From NCBI GenBank assembly GCA_002238865.1, contig MPNE01000020.1:1-64000 (forward strand): 64,000 nucleotides of DNA. The letters run 5' to 3'. Source of the DNA: Gemmatimonadetes bacterium bin94 (GTDB taxonomy: Bacteria; Gemmatimonadota; Gemmatimonadetes; Longimicrobiales; Gaopeijiaceae). Made by a program: the position numbers and the translations under genes. Below are positions 13,938-20,463 of the stretch, in pieces; within the stretch, counting starts at the first letter, position 1, and each line of letters starts with the position of its first letter. A model generated the notes under the pieces. It was not told the DNA's origin. It searched no databases and worked only from the letters and a program-made list of their open reading frames with translations.

Positions 13938-14723
13938 TCAGCCGTATCGCCCTTCGATGTAGTCCGCCGTCTCCTGGCACTCCGGCGCGAGGAACACTTC
14001 CTCCGTGCGCCCATGTTCGATAATGCGCCCCAGCAGCATGAAGACGCACTCGTCCGACGCCCGGCGCGCCTGCGCCATGTTGTGTGTCACCACGAGGATC
14101 GTGTACTCCCCTCGAAGCCGCCATATCATCTCCTCCACCGCCTCGGTTCCCGCGGGATCCAGCGCCGAACAGGGCTCGTCCATGAGGAGGACCTCGGGCT
14201 TCACGGGGAGCAGCCGGGCAATGCACAGCTTCTGCTGCTCCTCCAGCGACAGCCCGGTTGCGGGCTTGTCCAGGCGGTCCTTCACGGTGTCCCACAGGAG
14301 GACCTGGCGCAATGAAGACTCCAGGACTTCGTGTTCCTCGGCCGCGGTGATCTTGCGCAGCCGTGCCTCGTGGAGCCGGAAGCCGAAGAGCACATTCTCG
14401 CGGATCGAGATAGGCAAGGGATTGGGGCGCTGAAAGACCATGCCGATCTTCTTGCGCACCTGCACCAGTTCCACGTCGTCGCCGAAGATGTCGTTGCCGA
14501 GAACGGTCACGCTCCCCGTCGTGCGCACGTAGCCGAGCCGTTCGATGATGCGGTTGCAGGTGCGCAGCAAGGTGGTCTTGCCGCACCCGGAGGGTCCGAT
14601 CATGGAGGTGATGATCCCCTGCTTCACCCCCAGATCCACATCGAACAGGGCCTGGAAGTCCCCGTACCAGAGGTTGAGGCCCCGGGTCTCGATGGCGTAG
14701 TCGCCGCGGCCGCCGTCAGCCAT
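13938..14723 (-). CDS. pstB: phosphate ABC transporter ATPase, copy 2, with degenerate signature motif
   Basis: Cytoplasmic ATP-binding subunit of the Pst high-affinity phosphate importer (261 residues, normal length; the C terminus DYIEGRYG is diagnostic of PstB). Walker A GPSGCGKT (43-50), Q-loop GMVFQRPNP with Gln98, Walker B LLMDEPCSALDP (Asp182, Glu183) and H-loop VVTHNMAQA (His214) are intact. The ABC signature, normally LSGGQQQR, reads LSLEEQQKL (158-166), so the two glycines and the glutamine that contact the partner subunit's ATP are lost. It overlaps the other pstB by 8 bases. The defect is complementary to that of its neighbour, suggesting a heterodimer. Confidence 0.93.
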   Translation of the reverse strand: MADGGRGDYAIETRGLNLWYGDFQALFDVDLGVKQGIITSMIGPSGCGKTTLLRTCNRIIERLGYVRTTGSVTVLGNDIFGDDVELVQVRKKIGMVFQRPNPLPISIRENVLFGFRLHEARLRKITAAEEHEVLESSLRQVLLWDTVKDRLDKPATGLSLEEQQKLCIARLLPVKPEVLLMDEPCSALDPAGTEAVEEMIWRLRGEYTILVVTHNMAQARRASDECVFMLLGRIIEHGRTEEVFLAPECQETADYIEGRYG

Positions 14724-15528
14724 AGCGTCCCTCGATGTATCCCGTGGTGCGCTCGTCCTTCACCTTGCCTTCGAAGAGGTCCTCGGTCTCGCCGATCTCC
14801 ACCAGGTCGCCCATCAGGAAGAATGCGGTGCGGTCCGCCAGCCGCCGCGCTTGCTGAACCAGGTTGGTCACCAACACGATCGTCAGCTCCGTGCGCAGCT
14901 CCCTGAGCACGTCTTCGATCCTCATCGTCGTCACCGGATCGACGGCAATCGAGAACTCGTCCAGCAACAGCAGCTCCGGCTCCTGGGCCAGGGCCCGCGC
15001 GATCGTGAGGCGCTGCTGCTGCCCGCCCGACAACAGGCTCCCCAGCGAGTCGAGGCGGTCCTTCACCTCGTCCCAGAGCGCGGCCCGGGTCAGGCATCGT
15101 TCGACCACCTCGTCCAGCTTCTCCTTCTGGCGGATCCCGCGGAGCCGCGGCGAGAACGCGACATTCTCATACACGGTCAGCGGAAGTCCCACCGGGAGCG
15201 GGAACACAACGCCGATCCGGCTGCGCAGCGCGTACTCGTTGCGCCAGTCGTTGATGTCCTTCCCGTTGATGCGGACGCTCCCCTGCACGTCCATTGCCGG
15301 ATTGAAGGCGTCCATCCGGTTGAGCGCGCGCAGGAACGAAGTCTTGCCGCTGTTGGCGGGTCCGATGATCCCGAAGATCTCGTGCCTGTATACGTCCAGG
15401 TTGACACCGCTGAGCGCCGGCGTCCGGCTGTAGAAAACCGACAGGTCCCGGACCTGGACGATGGGGGACTCGTCGTAGCGGGGGCCGGCGGTGCCTTCGG
15501 TGCCCGCGGCCGCAGCGGGGCCTACCAC
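14716..15528 (-). CDS. pstB: phosphate ABC transporter ATPase, copy 1, with degenerate Q- and H-loops
   Basis: Second PstB homologue, 270 residues, also ending GYIEGRYG. Walker A GPANSGKT (56-63), signature LSGGQQQRL (166-174) and Walker B LLLLDE (Asp190, Glu191) are present. The Q-loop reads IGVVFPLPVG with Pro110 in place of Gln, the H-loop reads LVTNLVQQA with Asn222 in place of the switch His, and the usual DEP is DEF. This subunit therefore offers a good signature face but a poor catalytic face. Start is a GTG at 15528 overlapping the pstA stop by seven bases. It probably pairs with the adjacent copy 2 rather than forming a homodimer. Confidence 0.92.
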   Translation of the reverse strand: MVGPAAAAGTEGTAGPRYDESPIVQVRDLSVFYSRTPALSGVNLDVYRHEIFGIIGPANSGKTSFLRALNRMDAFNPAMDVQGSVRINGKDINDWRNEYALRSRIGVVFPLPVGLPLTVYENVAFSPRLRGIRQKEKLDEVVERCLTRAALWDEVKDRLDSLGSLLSGGQQQRLTIARALAQEPELLLLDEFSIAVDPVTTMRIEDVLRELRTELTIVLVTNLVQQARRLADRTAFFLMGDLVEIGETEDLFEGKVKDERTTGYIEGRYG

Positions 15529-16391
15529 TTCTTGAGCCCCCGGAGATAGACGCGGAAGCCGATCGAAACCGCGTTCATCAGCAGCACGATCGAGATCAGC
15601 ACCAGAGCCACGCCGAAGGTGAGCTCTTCCGGAACACCGGTCTGCTGCGTCGCGATGAAGTAGAGGTGATACGACAGCGCCATGGTCTGGTCGAACACTC
15701 CCTGCGGCAGGAAGGCCACGTACGCGGCAGCTCCGGTGAACATGATCGGCGCCGTCTCGCCCGCCGTGCGCGAAACTTCGAGGATCACGCCGGTGAGAAT
15801 GCCGCTGATGGAGTTGGGGAGCACGACCTTGCGGATGGTCTGCCAGCGCGTGGCCCCCATGTTCCAACACGCTTCCCTGAACGCCAGCGGCACGGCCTGA
15901 AGCGACTCGCGGGTGGCCACGATGACCACCGGTAGCGTCATGACGGCGAGGGTCAGGCTGGCGGCCAGGATGGAGGCCCCCATGTCGAAAAAGAGTACGA
16001 AAGCGCCGAAGCCGAAGAGCGCGTGAACGATCGAAGGCACGCCGGCCAGGTTGATGATGGCCAGATTGATGGCTCGGGTGAGGATGTTGTCCGGCGCGTA
16101 TTCGCTCAGGTAGAGGGCCGCGGCCACGCCGACGGGCACGGAGGCGAGCAGCGCGACGACCACCAGCCAGATCGTCCCCACCAACGCCGGCAGGATGCCA
16201 CCCGCCGTCATGTTGTTGGTGGGTGGCGTGAAGAGGAATTCCCACGAGATCGCCGGTCCGCCCTTGACGACCAGGGTGCCCACGATGATCAGGACCGGGA
16301 TCACCAGAGCCACCGTCATCAGGAAAAACGCGGCCTTCGCCACCGCTTGCGAGCGGTAGCTCCGTCGGTTGAGGGCGGTGGCGCCAAACAC
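15522..16391 (-). CDS. pstA: phosphate ABC transporter permease
   Basis: Inner-membrane permease subunit of the Pst importer, 289 residues with six predicted transmembrane helices. It shows the PstA landmarks: GGILPALVGTIWLV near helix 2, GVPSIVHALFGFGAF, and the EAA loop where the ATPase docks (AFREACWNMGATRWQTIRK). The first helix (MTVALVIPVLIIVGTLVV) is followed by the periplasmic TPPTNN segment typical of the family. It lies 3 bases after pstC and overlaps pstB copy 1. Confidence 0.93.
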   Translation of the reverse strand: MFGATALNRRSYRSQAVAKAAFFLMTVALVIPVLIIVGTLVVKGGPAISWEFLFTPPTNNMTAGGILPALVGTIWLVVVALLASVPVGVAAALYLSEYAPDNILTRAINLAIINLAGVPSIVHALFGFGAFVLFFDMGASILAASLTLAVMTLPVVIVATRESLQAVPLAFREACWNMGATRWQTIRKVVLPNSISGILTGVILEVSRTAGETAPIMFTGAAAYVAFLPQGVFDQTMALSYHLYFIATQQTGVPEELTFGVALVLISIVLLMNAVSIGFRVYLRGLKKW

Positions 16392-16394
16392 GGA

Positions 16395-17327
16395 CTACTT
16401 CTTCCTGATCCCGCGGACGACGAGGTCGGCCGTCAGGTTGATGATGAACGTCACCAGGAACAGGAAGATGCCCAGGGTGAAGAGGGCGCCCCAGTGATCC
16501 GATCCGTTGACGGTTTCACCGAGTTCGGCCGCGATCGTGGCGGTAAGTGCCCGCACCGAGTCGAAGGGGCTGGTGGGCAGGTTGATCGCGTGCCCCGAGG
16601 CCATGAGCACCGCCATGGTCTCGCCGAATCCCCTGCCGACTCCGAGGAGCACAGCCGCCAGCAACCCGTTCTTGCTGGCCGGAATCACCACCTTGAGAAT
16701 GACCTCCCACCTCGTCGCCCCAAGCGCTTCCGCGGCCTCGCGGTAGGTATCGGGCACGGCCTTGAGCGCGTCCTCGGCGATCGTCGTCATGATCGGTGCC
16801 GCCATCAGCCCGAGGATCAGGCCGGCGTTCAGGACTCCCAGCCCCAGGGGCACGTCGAAGACCCGGATGATCAGCGGGTTCATGATCGACATGCCCACGA
16901 ACCCCCAAACCACCGACGGAATCGCCGCGAGCATCTCCACGAGCACCTTCAACACCTCTCGGGTCTTCCCCGTGGCGAACTCGCCGATGTAGAGAGCGGC
17001 GCCCAGAGACAACGGGACCGAGAAGAGCATCGCGAAGCCGGTCACGCTGGCCGTACCCACCATCAGGGCGAGCGCCCCGTAGGTCGGGTTGTTGGAGGTG
17101 GGGCGCCAGGCGATAGAGGTGAAGAACTCGCCCAGGTCGAGGGACCCGAAGACGAAATCAAGGCCCTCTTTGGTCACGAAGACGAAGATCCCGACGATGA
17201 AGATGATCGCCGAGATCCCGCCGACGAAGACGAGAATGCGGGCTACCCGATCCACGTGCCACGCCAGGTCCCTGCGGTCCATGGCGTGCGGCGTCGCCAC
17301 GGTCGCCGATCGATCCGGAGGCGTCAC
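16395..17327 (-). CDS. pstC: phosphate ABC transporter permease
   Basis: Partner permease of PstA, about 310 residues with six transmembrane helices. Diagnostic stretches include FGALALMVGT-like YGALALMVGTAS, AIPSVVWGFVGM and the EAA docking loop YREAAEALGATRWEVI, with GRGFGETMAVLM after it. Start is a GTG at 17327 sharing four bases with the phoU stop; an ATG 15 codons later (MDRRDLAWHV) is an alternative that would trim a hydrophilic leader. Fourth gene of the pst operon. Confidence 0.92.
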   Translation of the reverse strand: MTPPDRSATVATPHAMDRRDLAWHVDRVARILVFVGGISAIIFIVGIFVFVTKEGLDFVFGSLDLGEFFTSIAWRPTSNNPTYGALALMVGTASVTGFAMLFSVPLSLGAALYIGEFATGKTREVLKVLVEMLAAIPSVVWGFVGMSIMNPLIIRVFDVPLGLGVLNAGLILGLMAAPIMTTIAEDALKAVPDTYREAAEALGATRWEVILKVVIPASKNGLLAAVLLGVGRGFGETMAVLMASGHAINLPTSPFDSVRALTATIAAELGETVNGSDHWGALFTLGIFLFLVTFIINLTADLVVRGIRKK

Positions 17328-18406
17328 TCGTCGTCCCGCACCCCTAGGGTCGTCATCAGGTCGCGAATTCGGTCCATCAGTTCGCGGTAGACAAGTTCGG
17401 CTTCCGAATCGGCGTTGATGCCGCTTTCCTCGAGATCCCACTGCAGAGCCGCGGAGCGGTAGGGCACGTCAAAGTGCTCCGATGGATCCACGCCGATCCC
17501 CACGACAACGTGATAGTGACGGGCGACATCGAGAGCGTCGTCAAAGGAAAGGGGCTCGTCGTCCGTCGGCAACAAGATACCCCGGCGCCGGAGGAACTCC
17601 AGCAGCTTCGGGTCGAACTCGTCGACGGGATTCATCCCGGCGGAGCCGAAGCGTCCCGCTTGCGGATAACTCGCCGCCGCCGCCACCTCCGCCAGTTTGC
17701 TGGTCACTGCGTGGTCGCCATCGAGGAAGAGAATCCGGAAACGCTTCCGTTCCTTGCGCTGGCCCGTCACCGCGAACAGGGTCATCTCGGTCGCGTTGTC
17801 CGCCTGCTCGGCGGCGCGCTGGAGGAGCCGGAACACGAGCAGGGCCCCGAACAGGTCCCGCACCCGCTGCGGATCGGATTCGGCGGCACTGGTGAGGACC
17901 TCGAAGGAGTAGGGGTAGATCGCCGCCGTCTGCGACGCGATCCCCCGGGCGACCCGCGCCAGGTCGGGGTCACCATCCAGGAACGCCGCCATCGAAGCCC
18001 CCAGCGCCTTGCCGGCCTGCTCCCCCATCATTCCGATGTTGTGGCGAACGGTTTCGGGGAGTTCCGATTCCATCTGGCGCGCTACCCGGCATATCGTCAC
18101 CGCGTAGTCGCCCGTCCGCTCGAGAGCCACCGCCAGGCGAAGTACCGCGGAGACGTACCGCAGGTGGCTCCCGCCGGGGAGGTGACGAGCCACGAACAGA
18201 TGGCACAGATGATCGAGATCCCGGATGGCCCGGTTCACCGCCCGATCCTTGATCACGGTCTCGTTGGCCAGACGCCGGTCGAGGCTGAGAACGGACTGGA
18301 CGCCGTGCCTGAGGTTGTCCTCGACGGACTCCACGATCATCCGCAATCGTGATCGGATGGCGAGAAGGTCCGCCTCCAGGCGCTTGTCGTAGAGGCTCAA
18401 ACGCAC
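17324..18406 (-). CDS. phoU: PhoU fused to a catalytically dead ArsC/LMW-phosphatase-like domain
   Basis: Residues 1-215 form the two three-helix bundles of PhoU, the cytoplasmic regulator that links the Pst transporter to the PhoR/PhoB phosphate response. Both metal-binding-type helices are visible (LERTGDYAVTIC, 95-106; RAAEQADNATEM, 197-208). Normal PhoU ends there at about 220-240 residues; this one runs to 360. Residues 222-330 match the low-molecular-weight protein-tyrosine-phosphatase/arsenate-reductase fold: strand RILFL, GSAGMNP, LLEFLRRRGI and the HYHVVVGIG strand all align. The P-loop that should read C-x5-R-S is DGDHAVTS, so catalytic Cys (Asp229) and Arg (Thr235) are lost. GTG start at 18406 overlaps the pstS end by 10 bases. 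Confidence 0.88.
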   Translation of the reverse strand: MRLSLYDKRLEADLLAIRSRLRMIVESVEDNLRHGVQSVLSLDRRLANETVIKDRAVNRAIRDLDHLCHLFVARHLPGGSHLRYVSAVLRLAVALERTGDYAVTICRVARQMESELPETVRHNIGMMGEQAGKALGASMAAFLDGDPDLARVARGIASQTAAIYPYSFEVLTSAAESDPQRVRDLFGALLVFRLLQRAAEQADNATEMTLFAVTGQRKERKRFRILFLDGDHAVTSKLAEVAAAASYPQAGRFGSAGMNPVDEFDPKLLEFLRRRGILLPTDDEPLSFDDALDVARHYHVVVGIGVDPSEHFDVPYRSAALQWDLEESGINADSEAELVYRELMDRIRDLMTTLGVRDDE

Positions 18407-19269
18407 TCCAGTTCGGCAACGGGTGCGTATCCGCGCTCAAGGATCAGGCACTGGCCGTCCGTGGACAGGATCCAGTTCATGTACTCCTCGACCGCGCCCT
18501 GTGGCTGACCGGCGGTGTACATGATCAAGGGACGGGCGATGGGGTAGCTTCCGTCAACGGCTGTGGTGATGGACGGCGCAACGCAGGGTCCGCCCTCTTC
18601 AGCGGAGATGCAAGGCATCTTCACATGCTCGGTGGCGTACGCCAGACCGCTGTAGCCGATCGCACACGGCGTGTTCTCCACCAGGTCGACGACGTCCTTG
18701 GAGCCGTGCATGTCCCGTGATCCGAGTCTGTACTCCAGGTCGTCCCCGAGCACTGTCTCCTTGAAGTAGACGTAGGTTCCCGAGTTGTTCTGCCGGCTGA
18801 CCAGGACGATCTCGTCGGAGTCGCACCCCGGAACGGCAACGCCCATATCCGACCACGACTCGACGGAGCCTCCGTCGCCGTAGACGGCCCGCAGCTGGGC
18901 CAGGCTGAGGCTGGTGATGGGGTTGTCGGCATGGAGGTAGACCGCCAGGGCATCGAAACCGACGACGAACTCCACGGGCTCGACACCGTTCTCCCGGGCC
19001 AGGCCTATCTCCGCGTCGCGCATCTTGCGAGACGCGTTGGCGATGTCCACCGTGCCGTTGATCATGGCCGAAATACCGGTCCCGGATCCGCCTCCGGTGA
19101 CGGCCACCGCCACGCTCGGGTTTATCGCGCCGTAGGCTTCGGCCCATGCCTGGGCCACGTTCAGCAACGTGTCCGAGCCCTTGTTCTGGATAACAGCCCG
19201 CTGGACGCGGTCAGCACCACCTCCGCACGCAACGATCGCAAGGGCCAACAGGGGGACGACTCGCTTCAT
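18397..19269 (-). CDS. pstS: phosphate-binding lipoprotein of Pst transporter
   Basis: Periplasmic substrate-binding subunit that captures phosphate and delivers it to PstCA. Lipobox LAIVAC at residues 10-15 indicates a membrane-anchored form. Conserved phosphate-contact segments: NKGSDTLLN, TGGGSGTGISAMINGT, IANASRKM, and VSRQNNSGTYVYFKE. 290 residues. The ATG at 19269 has GGAG about 10 bases upstream. First gene of a tightly packed operon phoU-pstC-pstA-pstB-pstB-amidohydrolase. A Pho-box-like repeat lies about 50 bases upstream. Confidence 0.93.
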   Translation of the reverse strand: MKRVVPLLALAIVACGGGADRVQRAVIQNKGSDTLLNVAQAWAEAYGAINPSVAVAVTGGGSGTGISAMINGTVDIANASRKMRDAEIGLARENGVEPVEFVVGFDALAVYLHADNPITSLSLAQLRAVYGDGGSVESWSDMGVAVPGCDSDEIVLVSRQNNSGTYVYFKETVLGDDLEYRLGSRDMHGSKDVVDLVENTPCAIGYSGLAYATEHVKMPCISAEEGGPCVAPSITTAVDGSYPIARPLIMYTAGQPQGAVEEYMNWILSTDGQCLILERGYAPVAELECV

Positions 19270-19395: not shown

Positions 19396-20463
19396 TCAGT
19401 AATACAGATAGGTCTGCAACTTGAAGGACAACTCCCTGGCGGACGATCCGGGATCGTAGATGTCGAGGTTGACTCCGATACGGTTCTTTCCCGCGACGTA
19501 CAGAAAGACGCCGGGTGTGAGGAGCAGTGCGGTATCGTTCATTGCCCCGCGGTCCGGATCTCCCCAGCTCACGCGCGCCATGGGTTCGACACCCGCGAAG
19601 GCGTCCCCCTCCAGCGCAACGTAGCGGCTCATGATCGCCTGGGCGGTCAGGAAACGCGGGATCTCGCTCCCCGCCGGTGCCTCCAACCGCCAGTTCGCAC
19701 CCCCGATCAACCCGATCTGAAGGTGAGTGCCTCTCCGGAAGCCACCGAAATCCAGGTCGGCGCCGTATGCGGTGGCAGCTCCCGTGTCGCCGTCCCCGCG
19801 GACGAAGTCGTGCCGGGACACGTTGCCCGAAAGCGAGACACCGTCCGTCATCCTGACCGAGATGCGCCCCGCCAGCGATTTCCCCGAATTCTCGTCGCTC
19901 CCCGCGGTGCCCGTCCCGTTGGTCAGCGTGGCCATGTAGGAGAGCCGGTCACCGATGGCACCATCGGCCTTGAACCCGATGTCACGATCCGAGTACGCGA
20001 GCTTCTCCGTGAACCGGCTGAGAGCACAGGTTCCGCCCGGACCGGCGCAGCTGCTGCCTCCGTTGATTCTTCCGGTCCTCTCGACCACGACGATGTCCGT
20101 GGAGCTGTCGAGTTGAAAGATGTCGAAGGCGCGCTTGAACTGGCCGGCGGAAATCCGAAAACCCGGGTGGATATTCAGCCGGAAGTAGGCATCCTTGAGT
20201 TCGAGTTCGCCACCGCCGAAGTCGGGCTGTACCCGCCCAACGAGCAGGTCCGACACGGAAACATCGATGGTCAACCGCGCCCGCCTGGTGAAGAAATCGG
20301 TGGACTTGCCGTCTTCGGCCGAACTGGTGGCGAACTGGGAGTGGAGACGGCCTCCGAACCGCACCTCCGCGGCGCGGGCGGTGATGTCCGTCTGTCCCTG
20401 CAGGGCCTCCGTCCCGCCCATCGCGAGAAGCAGGACGGCACCGACCATACGGGTATTGATCAA
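19396..20463 (-). CDS. phosphate-selective porin (OprP/OprO family)
   Basis: Outer-membrane beta-barrel channel of the porin_O_P family, which lets phosphate or polyphosphate into the periplasm. Signal peptide (MVGAVLLLAMGG...LQGQ), then family features near the mature N terminus: FGGRLHSQFATS, FFTRRARLTIDVSV, VQPDFGGGELELKDAYFRLN and FRISAGQFKRAFDI. About 355 residues, ending LQTYLYY with an aromatic terminus for outer-membrane insertion. Directly upstream of pstS in the same direction and preceded by its own Pho-box-like array, so it probably supplies the Pst system. Confidence 0.85.
   Translation of the reverse strand: MINTRMVGAVLLLAMGGTEALQGQTDITARAAEVRFGGRLHSQFATSSAEDGKSTDFFTRRARLTIDVSVSDLLVGRVQPDFGGGELELKDAYFRLNIHPGFRISAGQFKRAFDIFQLDSSTDIVVVERTGRINGGSSCAGPGGTCALSRFTEKLAYSDRDIGFKADGAIGDRLSYMATLTNGTGTAGSDENSGKSLAGRISVRMTDGVSLSGNVSRHDFVRGDGDTGAATAYGADLDFGGFRRGTHLQIGLIGGANWRLEAPAGSEIPRFLTAQAIMSRYVALEGDAFAGVEPMARVSWGDPDRGAMNDTALLLTPGVFLYVAGKNRIGVNLDIYDPGSSARELSFKLQTYLYY

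What the first reader, a model, noticed from the sequence alone, without database searches (positions are those of the whole stretch)
17324..18406. PhoU fused to a pseudo-phosphatase (ArsC/LMW-PTP-like) domain
The last 140 residues align in strand order with the ArsC/low-molecular-weight phosphatase fold, but the C-x5-R P-loop has become DGDHAVT (Cys to Asp229, Arg to Thr235). That loop binds phosphate or arsenate in the active enzymes, so a dead version inside the Pst operon could be an anion or nucleotide sensor acting on PhoU signalling.
Basis: partly seen in the sequence, partly recalled or inferred. Interest (0 to 1): 0.72.

Follow-up and report, generated by a model that had tools for sequence, protein, structure and literature searches.

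The report
PhoU fused to dead ArsC domain
In many unrelated bacteria the phosphate regulator PhoU carries a tail that descends from an arsenate-reductase/phosphatase enzyme but has lost its catalytic cysteine, and it comes with a phosphate importer whose two ATPase subunits are consistently unequal, which points to an undescribed variant of a textbook nutrient-uptake system.

Summary
Window 17324-18406 (-) encodes PhoU (residues 1-217) fused to a domain (about 221-354). Its family profile finds ArsC/LMW-PTP structures (E 8e-12), and a model of it (pLDDT 92) matches them best (VIA Z up to 17). The catalytic Cys is Asp229, the P-loop Arg is Thr235, the Asp-Pro acid loop is gone, and the domain has no Cys. 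It is under purifying selection.

It is not a local oddity. The fusion occurs in eight phyla (e.g. 42/395 Gemmatimonadota, 23/398 Pseudomonadota, 16/149 Planctomycetota genomes). Asp replaces Cys almost everywhere; Cys was never seen in this lineage. Some Acidobacteriota have Cys->Asp alone, with Arg and Asp-Pro kept. One separate PhoU-ArsC fusion has an intact active site.

The larger finding is the setting, pstS-fusion-pstC-pstA-pstB1-pstB2: PstB1 lacks the Q-loop Gln and H-loop His (66/66), PstB2 lacks LSGGQ (62/62). That predicts one consensus and one degenerate ATP site in a phosphate importer. The ATPase pair also occurs without the fusion.

Best reading: a dead ArsC domain used as a docking or regulatory module of PhoU. 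An anion sensor is possible but disfavoured. The mechanism is inferred, not shown.

The parts
17324..18406 (-). PhoU-pseudoArsC fusion gene, 360 aa, GTG start
   Evidence: conserved in relatives
17756..18406 (-). PhoU part, residues 1-217 (six helices, two PhoU repeats)
   Evidence: PF01895/TIGR02135; helices 5-214 in the model
17345..17746 (-). pseudo-ArsC/LMW-PTP domain, residues 221-354
   Evidence: profile E 7.9e-12 to ArsC; model and fold match
17699..17722 (-). degenerate P-loop, residues 229-236 (DGDHAVTS): Asp229 in place of the catalytic Cys, Thr235 in place of Arg
   Evidence: alignments
17438..17440 (-). Trp323, invariant in 60 of 60 compared domains, at the start of the former acid loop (WDLEE, no Asp-Pro)
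18397..19269 (-). pstS
   Evidence: TIGR02136 219.8 bits, over its 206.6 cut-off
16395..17330 (-). pstC (the ORF is open up to 17441; upstream end approximate)
   Evidence: PF00528; synteny
15522..16391 (-). pstA
   Evidence: PF00528; synteny
14716..15468 (-). pstB1: intact Walker A/B and LSGGQ, Q-loop Gln->Pro (15199-15201), H-loop His->Asn (14863-14865), Walker B DEF; start approximate
13938..14723 (-). pstB2: Q-loop and H-loop intact, signature LSGGQ -> LSLEE
19396..20463 (-). phosphate-selective porin O/P-like gene next to pstS (possible member of the operon)
   Evidence: PF07396 E 1.8e-6; Porin_O_P also lies by the operon in L055 and L078

Best explanation
The gene is the PhoU of a variant Pst phosphate importer. 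Its C-terminal domain comes from an ArsC-type (LMW-PTP fold) enzyme that was fused to PhoU once in this lineage, lost its nucleophile by Cys->Asp first, and later lost the Arg and the acid loop. It is now a non-catalytic module. Most likely the Asp carboxylate sits in the old oxyanion pocket and holds the P-loop by its backbone amides, as a built-in substitute for the bound anion, while the conserved face (P-loop Asn, Trp323, Pro-Phe-His-Thr before it) binds a partner. The natural partners are the asymmetric PstB1/PstB2 ATPase dimer, on which PhoU would act as a brake, and a PhoR-type kinase. Shown: gene, fold, dead active site, selection, distribution, operon partners, sequence asymmetry of the ATPases. 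Inferred: absence of activity, the role of Asp229, and the binding partner. The stated confidence is for this mechanism; the identification as PhoU plus a dead ArsC-fold domain I hold at about 0.97.
For: Fold and homology. Asp at the Cys position in 76 of 80 genome-contig loci, the rest Gly or Glu, never Cys, and in 23/23 Pseudomonadota, 16/16 Planctomycetota and 11/11 Acidobacteriota fusions of this lineage found by an HMM search without a P-loop requirement. Intermediates L195-L198 keep Arg and Asp-Pro but have Asp for Cys, so Cys->Asp came first. The PhoU parts of main fusions and intermediates fall on one side of a 100/99 branch, standard PhoUs and the active PhoU-ArsC L199 on the other. 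Purifying selection. Nearly fixed operon with asymmetric ATPases; 67 of 69 sampled fusion genomes have PstB1 of this type, the other two have the fusion at a contig end. PhoU of E. coli binds PstB and PhoR (PMC4423584) and Salmonella PhoU binds PhoR (PMC9239213).
Against: The asymmetric PstB pair also occurs with a standard PhoU (L219, L220, L222, L223) or with no PhoU gene in the operon (L211-L217), so the domain is not required by the ATPase pair. No interaction or complex was modelled, and partner contact is untested. The full-length model has pTM 0.60, so the placement of the two domains is uncertain.
Confidence: 0.42

Rival explanations
1. Anion sensor: the dead P-loop still binds phosphate or arsenate and reports it to PhoU.
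For: P-loop fold kept, Asn of the P-loop kept in 48 of 60, SAG motif kept, position in a pst operon; a few members keep the Arg (L143, L175, L195-L198).
Against: Asp puts a negative charge where the anion would sit, and the Arg is lost in most members including the window. Gly or Ser, which would keep an anion pocket, are rare at this position (3 Gly in 60).
Confidence: 0.15
2. Nucleotide, polyphosphate or other metabolite sensor using the old active-site cleft with a different ligand chemistry (for example metal-bridged through Asp229).
For: Conserved Asp229, Asn232, Trp323 and Pro-Phe-His-Thr line up with the active-site elements; yeast LMW-PTP was solved with adenine as an activator (1d2a title); PPK2 genes lie by the operon in L084 and L107.
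Against: No ligand evidence; PPK2 neighbours seen in 2 of 14 loci examined; Asp231 is not conserved (24 of 60).
Confidence: 0.25
3. Still an enzyme, with Asp229 as a nucleophile (aspartyl-phosphate intermediate).
For: Asp is strongly conserved and sits at the nucleophile position.
Against: Arg and the Asp-Pro general acid are lost in the window and most members; the second Asp of a DxD pattern is not conserved.
Confidence: 0.05
4. A vestigial or purely structural tail without regulatory role.
For: The whole fusion gene is absent from some operons, for example from between pstS and pstC in same-genus genome G006 (L211).
Against: Kept intact across eight phyla with invariant residues and dN/dS 0.12-0.32.
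Confidence: 0.08

Closest known systems
PhoU (TIGR02135, PF01895; E. coli PhoU)
   Same: Two PhoU repeats, six helices, ERxGDYA signature, position among the pst genes
   Different: Extra 140-residue domain; scores below the TIGR02135 cut-off; gene lies between pstS and pstC; single-PstB systems replaced by an unequal PstB pair
ArsC-type arsenate reductases / LMW-PTP (PF01451; PDB 3t38, 1jf8, 1y1l, 1jl3)
   Same: Fold (Z 15-17), strand order, P-loop position, SAG motif
   Different: No catalytic Cys, no Arg in most, no Asp-Pro acid loop, no redox Cys; fused to PhoU
Pseudophosphatase D2 domains of receptor tyrosine phosphatases (e.g. RPTP-gamma, PMC2638020)
   Same: Inactive phosphatase fold kept as a regulatory, interaction-mediating domain (head-to-toe D1-D2 dimer reported there); that such D2 domains have Asp for Cys is from memory, not checked
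   Different: Different phosphatase fold class, eukaryotic, partner is an active phosphatase rather than an importer
PstB1/PstB2 of Enterococcus faecalis (PMC12096839)
   Same: Two adjacent pstB genes in one pst-phoU locus
   Different: Both E. faecalis proteins keep all canonical motifs; here each lacks the complementary half
ABC transporters with one degenerate ATP site (type I exporters, PMC7756269; RbsA and NupO importers, PMC11466899)
   Same: One consensus and one degenerate nucleotide site formed by two unequal ATPase domains
   Different: Here two separate subunits in a Pst-type phosphate importer; I found no report of this for Pst

Membership tests
PhoU (phosphate signaling complex protein) | PhoU domain (PF01895) over the curated cut-off | tested here: met
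   59.3 bits against 23.5, two stretches
PhoU (phosphate signaling complex protein) | Full-length equivalog TIGR02135 over cut-off | tested here: not met
   103.5 bits against 130.25 although residues 8-216 align over the whole model; so a divergent PhoU
PhoU (phosphate signaling complex protein) | Gene within a pst operon | tested here: met
PhoU (phosphate signaling complex protein) | Binds PstB and PhoR and represses the Pho regulon | not testable with these tools
   needs experiment
ArsC / LMW-PTP (PF01451) | Fold | tested here: met
ArsC / LMW-PTP (PF01451) | Sequence relationship | tested here: met
   family profile E 7.9e-12 to ArsC; 24/47 members hit PF01451; the window protein alone does not
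ArsC / LMW-PTP (PF01451) | Catalytic C-x5-R(S/T) | tested here: not met
   D229-x5-T235-S; Asp/Gly/Glu for Cys in all compared members
ArsC / LMW-PTP (PF01451) | General-acid Asp-Pro loop | tested here: not met
   QWDLEESG in the window; WDVG-type in relatives; DPS only in L195-L198
Thioredoxin-coupled arsenate reductase | Resolving cysteines | tested here: not met
   no Cys in residues 218-360 of the window protein
ABC importer with one degenerate ATP site | Complementary loss of catalytic motifs in two ATPase subunits | tested here: met
   PstB1 without Q and H residues 66/66, PstB2 without LSGGQ 62/62; also in loci without the fusion
ABC importer with one degenerate ATP site | PstB1 and PstB2 form a heterodimer with unequal ATPase activity | not testable with these tools
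   needs biochemistry or a complex structure

The most novel reading that the evidence does not exclude
A widespread, undescribed class of Pst phosphate importer: it runs on a heterodimeric ATPase with one consensus and one degenerate site, and is gated by a PhoU whose dead ArsC domain (Cys->Asp) works as an internal sensor or clamp on that ATPase pair.
Probability: 0.35. Interest if true: 0.8.

Novelty: new variant of a known kind. Interest (0 to 1): 0.63.

Why it matters
How PhoU connects Pst transport to Pho signalling is still only partly understood after decades of work. A natural PhoU with an added, clearly definable domain, found in eight phyla including polyphosphate accumulators used in wastewater treatment (Accumulibacter, Dechloromonas), gives a handle: delete or mutate the domain and read transport and signalling. 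It also documents an enzyme turned into a regulatory part by one residue change, with intermediates still alive, and it predicts that a phosphate importer can run on one working ATP site.

Tried and rejected
1) Chance similarity: rejected by profile, fold and conservation. 2) Response-regulator receiver reading of the 'RILFLDxD' start: considered because receivers begin alike; all 50 listed structure matches are ArsC/LMW-PTP folds, so dropped. 3) HAD-like DxD nucleophile pair: the second Asp is not conserved (24/60). 4) Sampling bias: one search pattern demanded LF[VL]D; an HMM survey without that demand gave the same result, plus the intermediates and L199. 5) The fusion as obligate partner of the asymmetric PstB pair: rejected, the pair occurs without it; the reverse (fusion without the pair) was seen only at contig ends. 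6) L199 as ancestor of the family: not supported; both its halves group with standard PhoUs and active ArsCs. 7) Published description: full-text searches for PhoU with ArsC+fusion, LMW tyrosine phosphatase, LMWPc, PhoU domain+arsenate reductase, PstB1+PstB2, PstB+degenerate found none; only open-licence papers are held, so this is not proof of novelty. 8) A plasmid-collection search found only ordinary PhoUs.

Full report
WHAT IS THERE. The ORF at 17324-18406 on the minus strand codes for 360 residues without an internal stop. Residues 1-217 are PhoU: PF01895 at E 4.9e-16 and TIGR02135 at E 1.2e-29 across the whole model, though below the equivalog cut-off, so a divergent PhoU. The gene lies in one operon-like run on the minus strand: porin O/P-like gene, pstS, the fusion, pstC, pstA, pstB1, pstB2.

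THE C-TERMINAL DOMAIN. The window protein alone has no LMWPc hit. The family does: a profile of 56 such domains from many species finds arsenate reductases and LMW-PTPs in the PDB, best E 7.9e-12 over nearly the whole domain, and 24 of 47 full-length members hit PF01451 themselves. The predicted full-length structure has six PhoU helices (5-214) and then strand-helix-strand-helix-helix-strand-strand-helix (223-353), pLDDT 88. The domain alone models at pLDDT 91.8, pTM 0.88. Foldseek's best 50 PDB chains are all ArsC/LMW-PTP folds (3t38, E 1.4e-8, TMq 0.76), and VIA-align gives Z 17.1 for 3t38 and 16.4 for S. aureus ArsC. The Asp-Pro acid loop is also missing (QWDLEESG), and there is no Cys at all in residues 218-360.

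IS IT CONSERVED. 21 of 23 genomes of the genus have the fusion at 62-75% identity. In the phylum (Gemmatimonadota by the records) 42 of 395 sampled genomes have it. A genome-collection scan returned 80 loci with full-length fusions in Gemmatimonadota, Planctomycetota, Acidobacteriota, Pseudomonadota (including Accumulibacter, Dechloromonas, Chromatiaceae, Thiomargarita, Lysobacterales, Magnetococcales), Myxococcota, Bacteroidota, Rhodothermota and Bdellovibrionota. HMM surveys found it in 23 of 398 Pseudomonadota (four of them with two copies), 16 of 149 Planctomycetota and 12 of 149 Acidobacteriota genomes, the last count including L199 described below. Within the genus, pairwise dN/dS of the domain is 0.12-0.32, close to that of the PhoU part. 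The domain is maintained, not decaying.

THE ACTIVE SITE ACROSS THE FAMILY. In 60 diverse domains the Cys position is Asp in 56, Gly in 3, Glu in 1, never Cys; the P-loop Asn is kept in 48; the Arg position is mostly Leu, Val or Ala; Trp323 is kept in 60, Pro315 in 58, Phe316 in 57. Because one pattern of the genome-collection scan required an Asp, I checked with the HMM surveys: 23/23 Pseudomonadota, 16/16 Planctomycetota and 11/11 Acidobacteriota fusions of this lineage have Asp. Four Acidobacteriota proteins (L195-L198) have LFVD[QE]HN[SH]CRS with the Asp-Pro loop still present: only the nucleophile is changed. One further protein (L199) is PhoU fused to an ArsC with intact LC-VHNSARS and Asp-Pro, in a canonical pst operon with a single PstB, beside an ArsR-ArsC fusion and an ACR3-like permease gene (the permease was recognised by eye only). 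Trees of both halves separate L199 from the rest: its PhoU groups with standard PhoUs and its ArsC with stand-alone ArsCs, while the main fusions and L195-L198 share one side of a 100/99 branch in the PhoU tree, and L195-L198 lie between active ArsCs and the main group in the domain tree. The trees are unrooted, so this is the simplest reading rather than proof: one fusion, Cys->Asp first, Arg and acid loop lost later, and an independent active fusion elsewhere.

THE OPERON AND AN UNEQUAL ATPASE PAIR. The order pstS-fusion-pstC-pstA-pstB1-pstB2 holds in all loci that are long enough to show it. In L200-L203 the fusion comes first instead. The two PstB proteins are unequal in a complementary way: PstB1 has VVFPLPVGLP where the Q-loop Gln should be (66/66 without Gln) and VTN in place of VTH in the H-loop, but LSGGQQQ intact (66/66); PstB2 has intact Q- and H-loops but LSLE[EQA]QQ instead of LSGGQ (62/62). 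By the established architecture of ABC dimers, in which each ATP site joins the Walker, Q and H elements of one subunit to the signature of the other, this gives one consensus site (PstB2 body, PstB1 signature) and one degenerate site (PstB1 body, PstB2 signature). E. faecalis also has two adjacent pstB genes, but both keep all canonical motifs (PMC12096839). Degenerate sites are known in exporters (PMC7756269) and in the fused importer ATPases RbsA and NupO (PMC11466899). I found no report for Pst.

ARE FUSION AND ATPASE PAIR LINKED. Of 69 fusion genomes in three phylum samples, 67 have PstB1 of this type (42/42, 15/16, 10/11); the two others have the fusion at a contig end. Conversely 87 genomes have this PstB1, 20 of them without a detected fusion. 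In those examined, the operon has a standard PhoU (L219, L220, L222, L223), no PhoU gene (L211-L217; in same-genus G006 pstS is followed directly by pstC), is truncated with a fusion end visible (L218), or is undecided (L221, cut short). The unequal motifs are present there as well. So the ATPase pair is broader, and the fusion is a regulator added to it. That fits PhoU's role as a dispensable brake better than a role in transport itself.

OTHER CONTEXT. The window's genome also has a second, canonical pst region with an ordinary PhoU (L029) and two ordinary LMWPc proteins. Neighbours of the operon elsewhere include Porin_O_P, a PhoR/PhoB-like pair, PPK2 and a Na/Pi cotransporter, all consistent with phosphate.

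HOW IT MOST LIKELY WORKS. Known: E. coli PhoU binds PstB and PhoR and limits transport (PMC4423584), and Salmonella PhoU binds PhoR (PMC9239213). Inferred: the ArsC-fold domain adds a second contact or input. Cys->Asp puts a carboxylate where the oxyanion would sit; it could satisfy the P-loop amides and freeze the loop, which explains why the Arg could be lost afterwards while Asp, Asn and Trp were kept. That argues for a binding surface and against phosphate or arsenate sensing, but a metabolite of another chemistry remains possible. I rate docking or regulatory module 0.42, metabolite sensor 0.25, anion sensor 0.15, vestigial 0.08, active Asp enzyme 0.05.

NOVELTY. PhoU, the ArsC fold, pseudo-phosphatases and degenerate ABC sites are all known kinds. 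The combination - a PhoU with a built-in dead ArsC domain in a Pst system with an unequal ATPase pair, in eight phyla - appears undescribed in the open-licence papers searched. Hence a new variant of a known kind.

Noticed in passing
window 13938-15468 (-): Adjacent PstB1/PstB2 with complementary loss of ATPase motifs (no Q/H residues in one, no LSGGQ in the other), the same in more than 60 loci; also present without the PhoU fusion.
   Followed up: yes
L204 7898-13626 (G1067:C9): PhoU fused to an intact-looking ArsC in a canonical pst operon, next to an ArsR-ArsC fusion and an ACR3-like permease gene: an apparent arsenate island built on pst genes.
   Followed up: partly
L211 9189-9222 (G006, same genus): The fusion gene is absent from between pstS and pstC while the rest of the operon stays at 70-89% identity.
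   Followed up: partly
L219 600-1346: A third PstB-like gene beside pstB2 with degraded signature (LTTSMILQ) and H-loop (ATND) motifs.
   Followed up: no
L224 4725-6224 (G1067:C19): A distant PstB pair (49-51% to the window's) already has the same asymmetry (Q->A and H->N in one, LSLEQ in the other), suggesting that the unequal pair is old.
   Followed up: no
L084 12641-14260, L107 2611-4134: PPK2-family polyphosphate kinase genes beside the operon.
   Followed up: partly
L101 4329-6857: Gene beside the operon with an ATP-cone domain joined to a phosphoglycerate-mutase-like metalloenzyme domain; similar-looking starts in L094 and L107.
   Followed up: no
L101 12670-16588 and on: A second, canonical-looking PstC-PstA-PstB set follows directly after the variant operon.
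   Followed up: no
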